From the NCBI GenBank assembly GCA_019454105.1, contig CP075364.1, positions 2,607,362 through 2,671,361 on the forward strand: 64,000 nucleotides of DNA, in the 5' to 3' direction. Source of the stretch: Fimbriimonadaceae bacterium. GTDB taxonomy: Bacteria > Armatimonadota > Fimbriimonadia > Fimbriimonadales > Fimbriimonadaceae. The first letter of the stretch is position 1; each line of letters starts with the position of its first letter. The position numbers and the translations under genes are program-made. Of this stretch, positions 42,154-45,743 are shown piece after piece. The notes beneath the pieces are model-generated. The model was not told the DNA's origin, did no database searches, and worked only from the letters and a program-made list of their open reading frames with translations.

Positions 42154-42957
42154 ATGATCGTCGAGTCTTATGAAGACGTCATCGTCCTGTCAGGATCCCT
42201 CAGGTCCAACTTCTGGGAGACCATCCATACGGCTGTCTCGTTGACGCTCAAAAGGCATCCGACCGGCGTGGTCATCGACTGTAGCGGGATCACTGAGATC
42301 ACGACCGAAGGGGCCGACACCTTTGTCGACGCCATTCGCTTCGTTGAAGACCACGACCAGGCCCGGATCGTCGTCGCCGCTGTCCCGCCCCACGTCAAGG
42401 AAGTGCTTCGCCAGGTGCCAGACGTTCGGTCGCAGCTGCCCGAGGCCTCCACTGTGGAAGAGGCCCGCAGGTCTCTCGACCTGCTGGTGGAAGAAGAAGA
42501 CTTAGGCAAAAAGAAGCGCAAGGAGCCCACCAAAGCTTTCGACCGCATCATCGTCGGGGTCGTGAGCAGCGACGAGGGCGACACTCAGATGCTCCATGTG
42601 GTCGAGGAGATGGTCGAGAACCTTCCTGCCAAAGTGGTGCTCGTCGCCCCAATCGTCGTGCCTCGGGACAAGCCGGTCTCGGCCCCCATGCCGGTCGAAG
42701 AAGAGAAAGCGGCGGCGAGCCTCGACGCCGGCCGGAACCAGCTGATGAATCGGGGCATCCCTTGCGACATTCGGCTCGAGCGCCATCGCGAGCTCTCCAC
42801 CCTGATCCAAGAAGTCGGCGAAGAACTGAACGCGGCCCACATCGTGGTGGGACTCGCCTCGGACCTGAAAGGCGACGAGAGCTACATTAAAGTGCTGCGT
42901 TCGGTGATCGAGCGCGTGAAGCGGCCTCTCGTCATCGTCCGCGGCGCCCGCGTCTAG
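42154..42957 (+). CDS. STAS-domain plus UspA-like fusion, coupled to kimA
   Basis: It has 267 residues. Residues 1-115 have the STAS pattern: YEDVIVLSGSL, VVIDCSGITEITTEGADTFVDAIRF and RIVVAAVPPHVKEVLRQ. The D-C-S-G segment is like the serine loop of anti-sigma antagonists. Residues about 130-267 fit the universal-stress fold: FDRIIVGVVSSDEGDTQMLHVV and HIVVGLASDLKGDESYIKVLRSVIERVKRPLVIVRG. The typical ATP loop G-2x-G-9x-GS is not clear. The gene begins 2 bp after kimA and likely forms one transcript with it. It probably tunes the transporter. Confidence 0.8.
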   Translation: MIVESYEDVIVLSGSLRSNFWETIHTAVSLTLKRHPTGVVIDCSGITEITTEGADTFVDAIRFVEDHDQARIVVAAVPPHVKEVLRQVPDVRSQLPEASTVEEARRSLDLLVEEEDLGKKKRKEPTKAFDRIIVGVVSSDEGDTQMLHVVEEMVENLPAKVVLVAPIVVPRDKPVSAPMPVEEEKAAASLDAGRNQLMNRGIPCDIRLERHRELSTLIQEVGEELNAAHIVVGLASDLKGDESYIKVLRSVIERVKRPLVIVRGARV

Positions 42958-44258
42958 CTCGTTCGAGAGACAACGAACTGATCTCGGGCCCGTCCCGTCA
43001 AATGGATCGTCCGGTTCCCATCGCGAACAGGGATCTCCTCGATGAGGCGACCGTGGGCGTCGCGTGCGACCAGGTAGGTCACACCAGCCCGGGACTTGAC
43101 GCTCACCAGGCAAACGGTCCTCGATTCAATCTCATCAAACTGGATTCGGACAGAGTTCAGGGGAATCGGTTCGACCGAGTTCTTCAAAGCTTCACGAATC
43201 TGGCCCTCGAAGAGGTCTCGGGGCTTTTTCGACCGAAAGGCCCGAAGTTCGTCGTCGATTCCGACAGGGGTTCCGTCGTCGTCGATTCCGATCCAGAGTT
43301 CGCCTCCCTCGCTGTTCATGAAAGCCGCGATCGTTCTCAGGCACCCGTGACGTAGGCCAAGGTCGCGCGAGGAAGATTTCGGATTCCAATTGAAGCCCGA
43401 CTTGAACTCGGTCCTATGGTCTTCGATCGTGGGCCACTGGCCCTGGGTGACGGACCGTCCGACCCTGATCACGCTCCTGAAGTCAGGAATCGGGAGCCTT
43501 GTGCCCGCTGGGTCTGCCAGGATCCATGTCGAAACGAGTCGGGCACGGGCCCAAATCGCCGAAGACAGGACGTCTGCGAACCCTTGGATCGAATCGAGCA
43601 CCCAATCCTCCAGAGGCCCGGTCTCGGCCGCGACGGCGATCACGGCCGCGAGCCGTCCGCCAGTTCCGCAGTCAGGATCGACCACTGCGACGCCGGGCGC
43701 GAACTGAGCCCTGCGAGCTTCGGCCAAGCGCTCAGGCCACGTAGGGGCTTCCTGAGGCAGAACTGCCCGGTCCAAGGCTTCGAAAAACTGAGCCGAGGCA
43801 GTCAAACTCCAAGGCTGCGCCATCCTCTCGATCAAACCCGTCACCAACGAATCCGAGACCAAAGTCAGGGGTTGTACGGCCTGGTCGCCCAATTCTGGAG
43901 TCAGGATGCCCGTGCCGACGAAGGGAACCTCACCAGCCAGGTTAGCCACCAATCCCCTGGCACGAGCGTTCGGCTGGCCCAGTCCTTGGAGAGCCGCGAT
44001 CGAGACGCGCTGGAAAAGCGAGTAAGGCCCCGGTTCCCGCTTCCAATCGTCGATCAATGCCTCGAGATAATCCGAGCGTCCCTTGAAGGTGAGTTGACCG
44101 GTAGCTTGCAGGCTCTTCACCGTCAGGATCTTGGCGCACGCAGTCTCGACGGCCCTCCTCTTCGCGCATGGATCGGCCCGTCCCGATCCGAGCCAACGGA
44201 CGCGGTCGGACTCGGCTGACAAGAACTCAGACAGGTCTCCCGCCAGATCGCTTGTCAT
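42954..44258 (-). CDS. Protein with a DNA-methylase-like middle segment and a Schlafen AlbA_2 domain
   Basis: Start ATG 44258 overlaps the vsr stop (ATGA); 434 residues. Residues 1-150 are a helical region without a recognised fold. At 194-201, VVDPDCGTGGRLAAVIAVAAE matches motif I of N6-adenine DNA methylases (DPxCGTGG) by eye. The later stretch GFADVLSSAIWARARLVSTW is like the Gxx...A..RL helix that follows. The catalytic NPPY motif is absent. From 279 the AlbA_2 fold starts: EDHRTEFKSG, AAFMNSEGGELWIGIDDDG and VGIDDEL. AlbA_2 domains occur in defense proteins and may bind nucleotides or nucleic acids. Together with Vsr it looks like an accessory module. Confidence 0.72.
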   Translation of the reverse strand: MTSDLAGDLSEFLSAESDRVRWLGSGRADPCAKRRAVETACAKILTVKSLQATGQLTFKGRSDYLEALIDDWKREPGPYSLFQRVSIAALQGLGQPNARARGLVANLAGEVPFVGTGILTPELGDQAVQPLTLVSDSLVTGLIERMAQPWSLTASAQFFEALDRAVLPQEAPTWPERLAEARRAQFAPGVAVVDPDCGTGGRLAAVIAVAAETGPLEDWVLDSIQGFADVLSSAIWARARLVSTWILADPAGTRLPIPDFRSVIRVGRSVTQGQWPTIEDHRTEFKSGFNWNPKSSSRDLGLRHGCLRTIAAFMNSEGGELWIGIDDDGTPVGIDDELRAFRSKKPRDLFEGQIREALKNSVEPIPLNSVRIQFDEIESRTVCLVSVKSRAGVTYLVARDAHGRLIEEIPVRDGNRTIHLTGRARDQFVVSRTS

Positions 44259-44707
44259 CGACCTAAGGCCCCTCGGATTCGGTCCACGACGTCGCCCATC
44301 CCGTGCCTCAACTCGCACTCCCATATGGTGAGCACGGTGAAGCCCAGTCGTTCAAGTTCGGCCCGTCGTTCCTCGTGCCGGGCCCGGTTTCGCTCAATTT
44401 TGGTTTGCCAAAAAAGGGCGTTCGTGGAGGGCATCCTCGCGCGTCCACAGTCGTGGCCGTGCCAAAAGCATCCATGGACAAAGACGGCCAATCGGGACGG
44501 GCCAAAGACGATGTCGGGCGTGCCAGGAAGCTTGCGGACGTTCTTACGATAGCCACGCAACCCTTCGGCCCAGAGAGCTGATCGAAGGGTCACCTCGGGT
44601 TTGGTGCCCGTGCTCCGGTTGCCCTGCATCGACCGTCGAGTCGACTCAGCGACGGTCAGGGTTTCCCGCAGTCGGTTGAGGCCGTAGAGCTTGCCAGTGT
44701 CAGCCAC
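44255..44707 (-). CDS. vsr: Very short patch repair endonuclease (Vsr)
   Basis: It has 150 residues from a GTG start. Vsr nicks 5' to the T of T:G mismatches that arise from 5-methylcytosine deamination. The N-terminal helix has TRRSMQGNRSTGTKPEVTLRSAL. Asp65 in TPDIVF is the metal ligand. VFVHGCFWHGHDC holds His83 and the zinc residues Cys80, His85 and Cys87; Cys131 in WECEL completes the zinc set. The usual partner, a cytosine-C5 methyltransferase, is not adjacent. Instead the gene is coupled to the AlbA_2 protein gene by a 4-bp overlap. Confidence 0.93.
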   Translation of the reverse strand: MADTGKLYGLNRLRETLTVAESTRRSMQGNRSTGTKPEVTLRSALWAEGLRGYRKNVRKLPGTPDIVFGPSRLAVFVHGCFWHGHDCGRARMPSTNALFWQTKIERNRARHEERRAELERLGFTVLTIWECELRHGMGDVVDRIRGALGR

Positions 44708-44735: not shown

Positions 44736-45743
44736 TCATCGCCCTTCGGCCTTCAGCGATGCCCAGAACTTGTCTCGGGCTTTGACAGCTCGGGCGGGGA
44801 AATCGGTGAAAAGGCCGTCGGCTCCTGCGTCCAAAAACGCGGCGATCTCCGAGTCCGGGTCTGTGCTCAAAGGGAGGAACTGAGCCTCGTCGCGAAAGGT
44901 CCAAACGTGCACTTTGAGCTTCTGGCGCCGGGCCTCCCGAACAAGCTCGGTCGGCGTCCCAAGCCCACGCGGTCCTTTCGGAACCACGAGATCTTTGCTT
45001 GGGCCGATTCCTTGGGCATAGCTCGCGATGAACTTCAGACCTTCGGGAGTCGCTAAGTCGGCGTATCCCCGGGGATCGCTCGCGAGAGTCAGATCGTAAG
45101 GGCGGCCGATCGGGCTCAACAGCTGCACCAGCGGACTCTTGACCAGAGCCCTAAGCCGCTGAAGCGGCCCCACCTCGAAGCACTGGACAAAGACCTTGGC
45201 TCTCGGGTCATCCAGTCCATGGGCCTTCAAAGCACTGGCCATGGCCCCAACCATGTCGAGCTTGACGGAATTGAAATAGGTCGGGTGCTTCATCTCTGGG
45301 TAAACGCCGATGCCGCGCTTCCGGGCGAGGGCAACTACCTCATCGAACGTCGCCACATCGAACTTCCCGTCGAACTTCGCGCTTTCCGGGCGGATCTTAG
45401 GCAGTCTCTCCTTGGCTCGAAGAGTCTTGACCTCGGCAAGCGTGAAGTCTTCGGAAAACCATCCGATGACCCTTTGCCCATCGATCGTCTTCGTCGTCTT
45501 GCGAGAAGCGAACTCGGGTCTGGTGGCCACGTCGGTCGAGTCGCTCAACTCGTTCTCGTGTCGGGCGATCAAGGCCCCGTCTTGAGTCATCACCAAGTCC
45601 GGCTCGACATAGTCGGCGCCTTGGGCGATCGCGAGCTCGTATGCGGCGAGGGTGTGTTCGGGACGTTCTCCGCTCGCTCCTCGGTGAGCGATGACGAGGG
45701 GTCGATCGACGGCGATGGCAATGGCGAGGAGCGTTCCGAAGAT
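44736..45743 (-). CDS. Glycerophosphodiester phosphodiesterase (start codon unclear)
   Basis: The first canonical starts (TTG, GTG, ATG at 45602-45594) lie inside the family core. They would lose the conserved N-terminal catalytic segment VIAHRGASGERPEHTLAAYE. That segment is encoded in the same open frame, which is open from a stop codon at 45753-45755. No ATG, GTG or TTG lies between. ATC at 45743 (after GTGGAGGC) or ATT at 45722 are possible rare starts, giving about 335 residues. YVEPDLVMTQDG and YPEMKHP support the family. The enzyme splits glycerophosphodiesters. A short hydrophobic GTLLAIAIAV precedes the core. Confidence 0.8.
   Translation of the reverse strand: MFGTLLAIAIAVDRPLVIAHRGASGERPEHTLAAYELAIAQGADYVEPDLVMTQDGALIARHENELSDSTDVATRPEFASRKTTKTIDGQRVIGWFSEDFTLAEVKTLRAKERLPKIRPESAKFDGKFDVATFDEVVALARKRGIGVYPEMKHPTYFNSVKLDMVGAMASALKAHGLDDPRAKVFVQCFEVGPLQRLRALVKSPLVQLLSPIGRPYDLTLASDPRGYADLATPEGLKFIASYAQGIGPSKDLVVPKGPRGLGTPTELVREARRQKLKVHVWTFRDEAQFLPLSTDPDSEIAAFLDAGADGLFTDFPARAVKARDKFWASLKAEGR

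What the first reader, a model, noticed from the sequence alone, without database searches (positions are those of the whole stretch)
42954..44707. Vsr endonuclease coupled to a methylase-like/AlbA_2 fusion protein
vsr normally sits beside a cytosine-C5 methyltransferase. Here it overlaps by 4 bp a 434-residue protein. That protein has a DPDCGTGG motif like motif I of N6-adenine DNA methylases, lacks NPPY, and ends in an AlbA_2 domain. AlbA_2 is common in defense proteins. The pair may be a mismatch- or modification-sensing module in which a dead methylase scaffold reads DNA. The methylase reading is by eye.
Basis: partly seen in the sequence, partly recalled or inferred. Interest (0 to 1): 0.72.

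Follow-up and report, generated by a model that had tools for sequence, protein, structure and literature searches.

The report
Dead methylase-AlbA_2 relic beside vsr
Next to an ordinary mismatch-repair nuclease gene sits a gene descended from a DNA-methylating defence enzyme that has lost its methylating part but kept a nuclease-like (Schlafen/SAMD9-type) tail; it appears to have become an ordinary inherited chromosomal gene, and its link to the repair nuclease looks like shared location rather than shared function.

Summary
Window 44255-44707(-) encodes a bona fide Vsr. It overlaps by 4 bp (ATGA) a 434-aa protein, "P1", at 42954-44258(-). 100, E 1e-40). P1 then jumps straight to AlbA_2, without the ~550-600 residues (NPPY, target-recognition domain) that intact methylase-AlbA_2 fusions keep in related genomes. 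None of 29 truncated relatives has NPPY; motif I is intact in 5/29; the AlbA_2 triad E-x4-E...D is complete in 20/29. The AlbA_2 model matches the SAMD9 tRNase domain and Schlafens. The coupling idea is not supported. Among 85 genomes of the bacterial family, P1 is in 22 and Vsr in 28; the pair is adjacent in only 5 (3 genera), with no significant association (p=0.19). Both sit in a vertically inherited housekeeping neighbourhood, not a defence island; each is lost without the other. Vsr instead tracks C5 methyltransferases (24/28 vs 22/57). Best reading: a domesticated, catalytically dead methylase-AlbA_2 relic, probably an AlbA_2 RNase, beside a normal Vsr that serves unlinked C5 methylases.

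The parts
44255..44707 (-). vsr, 150 aa, DNA mismatch (T:G) endonuclease; E38, D65, H78, H83 and Zn ligands C80, H85, C87, C131 match E. coli Vsr
   Evidence: PF03852 and TIGR00632 above cut-off; E. coli Vsr 1CW0 E 8e-29 with active-site region aligned; invariant columns
42954..44258 (-). P1, 434 aa: dead type IIG/Eco57I methylase N-half fused to AlbA_2 (an in-frame upstream ATG at 44324 would give 456 aa)
44255..44258 (-). 4-bp ATGA overlap of the vsr stop and P1 start
   Evidence: the same 4-bp overlap in L046 and L047
43434..44258 (-). P1 residues 1-275: homologous to residues ~182-552 of Eco57I-type methylases; motif X segment (GSYYTP) missing
   Evidence: hhalign prob 100, E 1.4e-40; alignments
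43659..43679 (-). motif I remnant DPDCGTG (residues 194-200)
   Evidence: intact in only 5 of 29 truncated relatives
43425..43445 (-). junction (residues 272-278) where full-length fusions carry ~550-600 more residues with NPPY and target-recognition domain
   Evidence: profile coordinates of L063, L118-L121
42999..43424 (-). AlbA_2 domain (residues 279-420) with putative Schlafen-type triad E279, E284, D327
   Evidence: PF04326; invariant columns; model pLDDT 86 matching SAMD9 tRNase domain 9o0d, SLFN11, SLFN13
42154..42957 (+). convergent neighbour, STAS/UspA-like protein (named by eye; not part of the system)
44736..45596 (-). upstream neighbour, glycerophosphodiester phosphodiesterase-like (named by eye; not part of the system)

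Best explanation
P1 is a domesticated relic of a defence methylase. In related genomes an intact type IIG/Eco57I-type adenine methylase with a C-terminal AlbA_2 domain is encoded beside an HKD-SNF2 helicase. P1 looks like that fusion with the stretch from after motif III to the AlbA_2 domain deleted, which removed NPPY, the rest of the catalytic domain and the target-recognition domain. It is therefore not expected to methylate. Its retained, constrained part is AlbA_2, which most likely acts as a Schlafen/SAMD9-like metal-dependent nuclease on structured RNA such as tRNA (or at least binds nucleic acid), with the methylase remnant as a helical scaffold or regulatory cap. The neighbouring Vsr is a conventional T:G-mismatch endonuclease that protects sites of solitary C5 methylases encoded elsewhere. 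The two genes are neighbours because both belong to an ancestral operon-like housekeeping neighbourhood, and each can be lost without the other. Shown: homology, missing motifs, synteny, independent loss, purifying selection in related genera, AlbA_2 fold. Inferred: nuclease activity, its target, the role of the methylase remnant, and which C5 methylase Vsr serves.
For: hhalign of the P1 N-half to 8 full methylases, prob 100, E 1.4e-40. No NPPY in 29 truncated members; motif I intact in 5/29 but 8/8 full-length. Full fusions match the same profile at 428-433 and 435+ with ~550-600 residues between. They sit next to an HKD+Snf2 helicase and score as type IIG in PADLOC. In the N-half tree full methylases form one clade (support 1.0) with truncated forms outside on long branches. 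Synteny: PurQ-S9pep-Vsr-P1-HD-LPS-transport gene intact in G024, P1 directly beside HD in 12 genomes, Vsr beside P1 in 5, and G009 has S9pep-Vsr-HD without P1. P1-Vsr co-occurrence p 0.19; Vsr-C5 methylase 24/28 vs 22/57, p 5e-5. dN/dS 0.17-0.18 for close pairs with dS < 0.75; GC of both genes typical of the region. AlbA_2 model pLDDT 86, top PDB match SAMD9 tRNase domain; E279/E284 spacing fits SLFN13 E205/E210 with D248 (PMC5862951). Precedent for a Vsr unlinked to its C5 methylase: Caulobacter VsrA/ScmA (PMC12907096).
Against: The complete triad is lost in 9 of 29 truncated members, including some at the syntenic locus, so nuclease activity may not be universal. P1 itself still has a good motif I, so SAM binding is not excluded. 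Co-occurrence counts are not corrected for phylogeny. Overlap or close coupling with Vsr is kept in the genomes that have the pair adjacent. Selection was measured only in related genera; for P1 itself dS is saturated.
Confidence: 0.6

Rival explanations
1. First reader's module: P1 binds Vsr and senses modified or mismatched DNA, the dead methylase acting as a reader that directs Vsr.
For: ATGA overlap; pair conserved in 5 genomes of 3 genera; P1 presence correlates with a solitary C5 methylase ortholog, 15/22 vs 5/63 (phylogeny not corrected).
Against: P1 without Vsr in 12 genomes and Vsr without P1 in 18. Where Vsr is absent P1 follows the S9 peptidase gene, and in G009, where P1 is absent, Vsr overlaps HD by 4 bp, so the overlap is generic to this locus. 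The target-recognition domain is gone.
Confidence: 0.1
2. P1 is a DNA-binding regulator or nucleoid-type protein, AlbA_2 serving only as a DNA-binding domain without nuclease activity.
For: AlbA_2 is often described as DNA-binding (pAgo survey PMC6299218); a crystal structure of human SAMD9 with DNA is a structural match; the triad is incomplete in 9 of 29 members.
Against: E-x4-E is kept in 26/29 and the full triad in 20/29 including this protein; the best structural match is a tRNase domain.
Confidence: 0.25
3. The pair, or P1 alone, is a still-functional anti-phage defence unit (for example abortive infection through AlbA_2 tRNA cleavage).
For: Ancestry in a helicase-methylase defence operon; Schlafen RNases act as backup effectors in BREX-type systems (PMC12839542).
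Against: Vertically inherited housekeeping locus, native GC, no defence genes seen adjacent and no PADLOC hit for P1.
Confidence: 0.15
4. P1 is a decaying pseudogene-like remnant without function.
For: Long branches; further reduction in some lineages (343-368 aa forms; degenerate copy L058:1885-3162).
Against: dN/dS 0.17-0.18 in related genera; open frames in 22 genomes; AlbA_2 well conserved.
Confidence: 0.08

Closest known systems
Type IIG / Eco57I-type restriction-methylase (PF07669, PF20473; PADLOC REase_MTase_IIG), intact methylase-AlbA_2 fusions L063, L118-L121
   Same: N-terminal helical region, motif I region and LPxL..GxSL segment align end to end; C-terminal AlbA_2 in the same order
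   Different: P1 lacks NPPY, motif X, the rest of the catalytic domain and the target-recognition domain, and the HKD-SNF2 helicase partner
Schlafen / SAMD9 AlbA_2 nuclease domain (PF04326; SLFN13, SAMD9 tRNase)
   Same: Fold and E-x4-E...D acidic triad
   Different: Only a single AlbA_2 lobe fused to a methylase remnant; no second Schlafen lobe or C-terminal helicase; activity untested
Vsr (E. coli Vsr, 1CW0)
   Same: Family score and catalytic and zinc residues
   Different: Gene not beside its C5 methylase; beside P1 instead
Caulobacter VsrA with solitary C5 methylase ScmA (PMC12907096)
   Same: Vsr-like nuclease unlinked to a solitary C5 methylase
   Different: No AlbA_2 protein is mentioned with VsrA (term absent from the paper)

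Membership tests
Vsr endonuclease | PF03852 / TIGR00632 above cut-off | tested here: met
Vsr endonuclease | catalytic Asp/His/Glu and zinc ligands | tested here: met
   aligned to 1CW0; invariant across 8 family members except the H85 ligand position
Vsr endonuclease | T:G mismatch cleavage next to methylated sites | not testable with these tools
   needs enzyme assay
Type IIG / N6-adenine methylase | homology over the SAM-binding half | tested here: met
   hhalign prob 100, E 1.4e-40
Type IIG / N6-adenine methylase | motif IV NPPY | tested here: not met
   0 of 29 truncated members, 8 of 8 full-length
Type IIG / N6-adenine methylase | target-recognition domain and motif X | tested here: not met
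   missing in alignment
Type IIG / N6-adenine methylase | SAM (Rossmann) fold by structure prediction | tested here: inconclusive
   pLDDT 50, pTM 0.44, no PDB match
Schlafen AlbA_2 | PF04326 and fold | tested here: met
   E 1.1e-15; SAMD9 tRNase match prob 1.0
Schlafen AlbA_2 | E-x4-E...D triad | tested here: met
   E279, E284, D327
Schlafen AlbA_2 | RNase activity | not testable with these tools
   needs assay
Defence-island system | located among defence genes or mobile | tested here: not met
   conserved housekeeping synteny and native GC
Vsr-P1 functional module | co-inheritance of the two genes | tested here: not met
   10/22 vs 18/63, p 0.19

The most novel reading that the evidence does not exclude
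A truncated restriction-methylase-AlbA_2 protein has been recruited as a housekeeping tRNA/RNA nuclease (or modification reader) in one bacterial family, with the dead methylase domain as its sensor, and in some lineages translationally coupled to Vsr so that mismatch repair and RNA cleavage respond together.
Probability: 0.12. Interest if true: 0.75.

Novelty: new variant of a known kind. Interest (0 to 1): 0.42.

Why it matters
It is a clear case, with intact and intermediate forms in relatives, of a defence methylase losing catalysis and becoming a vertically inherited chromosomal gene while keeping a Schlafen-type tail. Bacterial Schlafen domains are newly recognised effectors, and a non-defence member would be useful. 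It also warns that adjacency of vsr to a methylase-like gene need not mean a shared function.

Tried and rejected
NCBIfam and PADLOC gave nothing for P1. The genome-contig scan returned only one AlbA_2 relative. The first viral-plus-AlbA_2 alignment misaligned motif I with the AlbA_2 GG motif and a split-fragment version also failed, so the N-half was aligned alone; its model was poor. One dN/dS pair (tandem1) was out of frame and is disregarded. The literature search for type IIG with Schlafen found no paper. Considered and rejected: recent horizontal acquisition of the pair (GC native and synteny conserved); a defence island (no defence genes beside the pair).

Full report
OBSERVATION. The window encodes, on the minus strand, a 150-aa Vsr (44255-44707) and a 434-aa protein, P1 (42954-44258), overlapping by ATGA. 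Vsr is above the curated cut-offs of PF03852 and TIGR00632, and its family profile matches E. coli Vsr (1CW0, E 8e-29) through the active site. P1 has one Pfam hit, AlbA_2 at 279-420, and none in NCBIfam or PADLOC.

WHAT P1 IS. Relatives were found in 29 of 101 related genomes. Aligned with full-length Eco57I-type methylases, P1 and its relatives share the N-terminal helical part, the motif I region and the LPxL..GxSL segment, then jump to AlbA_2. Profile-profile comparison is decisive: P1 residues 2-271 match methylase residues 182-552 with probability 100 and E 1.4e-40 (whole alignments 1.5e-59). Full-length methylase-AlbA_2 fusions of 1227-1295 aa exist in the same bacterial family (L063, L118-L121). 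They match the P1 profile up to position ~428-433 and again from ~435, with about 550-600 residues in between carrying NPPY and the recognition domain. So P1 looks like such a fusion after one internal deletion. NPPY is absent in 29 of 29 truncated members and present in 8 of 8 full-length ones; motif I is intact in 5 of 29 against 8 of 8. In an N-half tree the full methylases form one clade with support 1.0 and the truncated forms lie outside on long branches. A model of residues 1-276 with remote viral homologs was too poor to judge the SAM fold (pLDDT 50).

THE RETAINED PART. AlbA_2 is the conserved half. E279, E284 and D327 are invariant in the core alignment and the triad is complete in 20 of 29. 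The E-x4-E spacing equals that of SLFN13 E205/E210 with D248 (PMC5862951). The domain model (pLDDT 86) matches the SAMD9 tRNase domain, Corynebacterium DIP2311, SLFN11 and SLFN13. Nuclease activity is therefore plausible but not shown. The literature is split: AlbA_2 is called DNA-binding in pAgo operons (PMC6299218), while Schlafen-family domains are described as RNase effectors in BREX (PMC12839542).

SURROUNDINGS. The intact fusions lie next to an HKD-SNF2 helicase and score as type IIG enzymes, i.e. a defence-type operon. The truncated family does not. A marker scan shows an ancestral order DUF1611-NlpC-PurQ-S9 peptidase-Vsr-P1-HD hydrolase-LPS-transport (LptA/D N-terminal domain, PF03968) gene, complete in G024; P1 is directly beside HD in 12 genomes and beside Vsr in 5 (G000, G015, G041, G053, G024). 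G009 has S9 peptidase-Vsr-HD with P1 gone and Vsr overlapping HD by 4 bp. In the window the pair still lies near PurQ, NlpC and DUF1611. GC is native. In genera with close pairs P1 is under purifying selection (dN/dS 0.17-0.18). Short P1-type proteins (methylase half plus AlbA_2) were found only in this one bacterial family among 291 genomes of the phylum.

IS IT A MODULE? Across 85 genomes of the family P1 (counted as methylase half or its remnant plus AlbA_2) is in 22 and Vsr in 28. They co-occur in 10, against 18 Vsr among 63 genomes without P1 (p 0.19). Vsr tracks C5 methylases (24/28 vs 22/57, p 5e-5). P1 also tracks an unlinked C5 methylase ortholog of this genome (15/22 vs 5/63), but all these tests ignore phylogeny, so this is a lead only. 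A Vsr working in trans with a solitary C5 methylase has precedent in Caulobacter (PMC12907096). This genome has two full-length C5 methylases and one shorter C5-like protein, all far from vsr.

VERDICT. Observation confirmed; the dead methylase-AlbA_2 reading is right; the mismatch-sensing pair is not supported. Most likely P1 is a domesticated defence relic acting through AlbA_2, and Vsr does its ordinary job.

Noticed in passing
G000:C1:2105072-2112749 (L061:7073-14750): Own genome carries an intact defence-type operon of the ancestral kind: HKD-SNF2 helicase, Eco57I/type IIG methylase (no AlbA_2) and a PDC-M11A (PADLOC candidate) gene.
   Followed up: partly
L055:1633-7263 and L056:7812-13435: Three tandem diverged copies of truncated methylase-AlbA_2 genes in two genomes of one genus, which also keep a further copy at the syntenic locus (L137, L124).
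   Followed up: partly
L063, L118, L119, L120, L121: Full-length type IIG methylase with C-terminal AlbA_2 beside an HKD-SNF2 helicase-like gene; no name for this fusion was found.
   Followed up: partly
L130:3288-5597; L131:1466-2065; L152:2103-3497: In viral contigs AlbA_2 is C-terminal on a 769-aa protein that by eye resembles DUF262/GmrSD, or encoded next to a helicase-fragment-like gene or next to a type IIG methylase.
   Followed up: no
G000:C1:21534-22670 and orthologs in 19 other genomes: Solitary C5 methylase conserved at 54-66% identity in the family, correlated with P1 presence; candidate partner of Vsr.
   Followed up: partly
L058:1885-3162: Degenerate P1 copy at the syntenic locus that has lost most of AlbA_2, in a genome with a second, better preserved copy (L057:9902-11770).
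   Followed up: no
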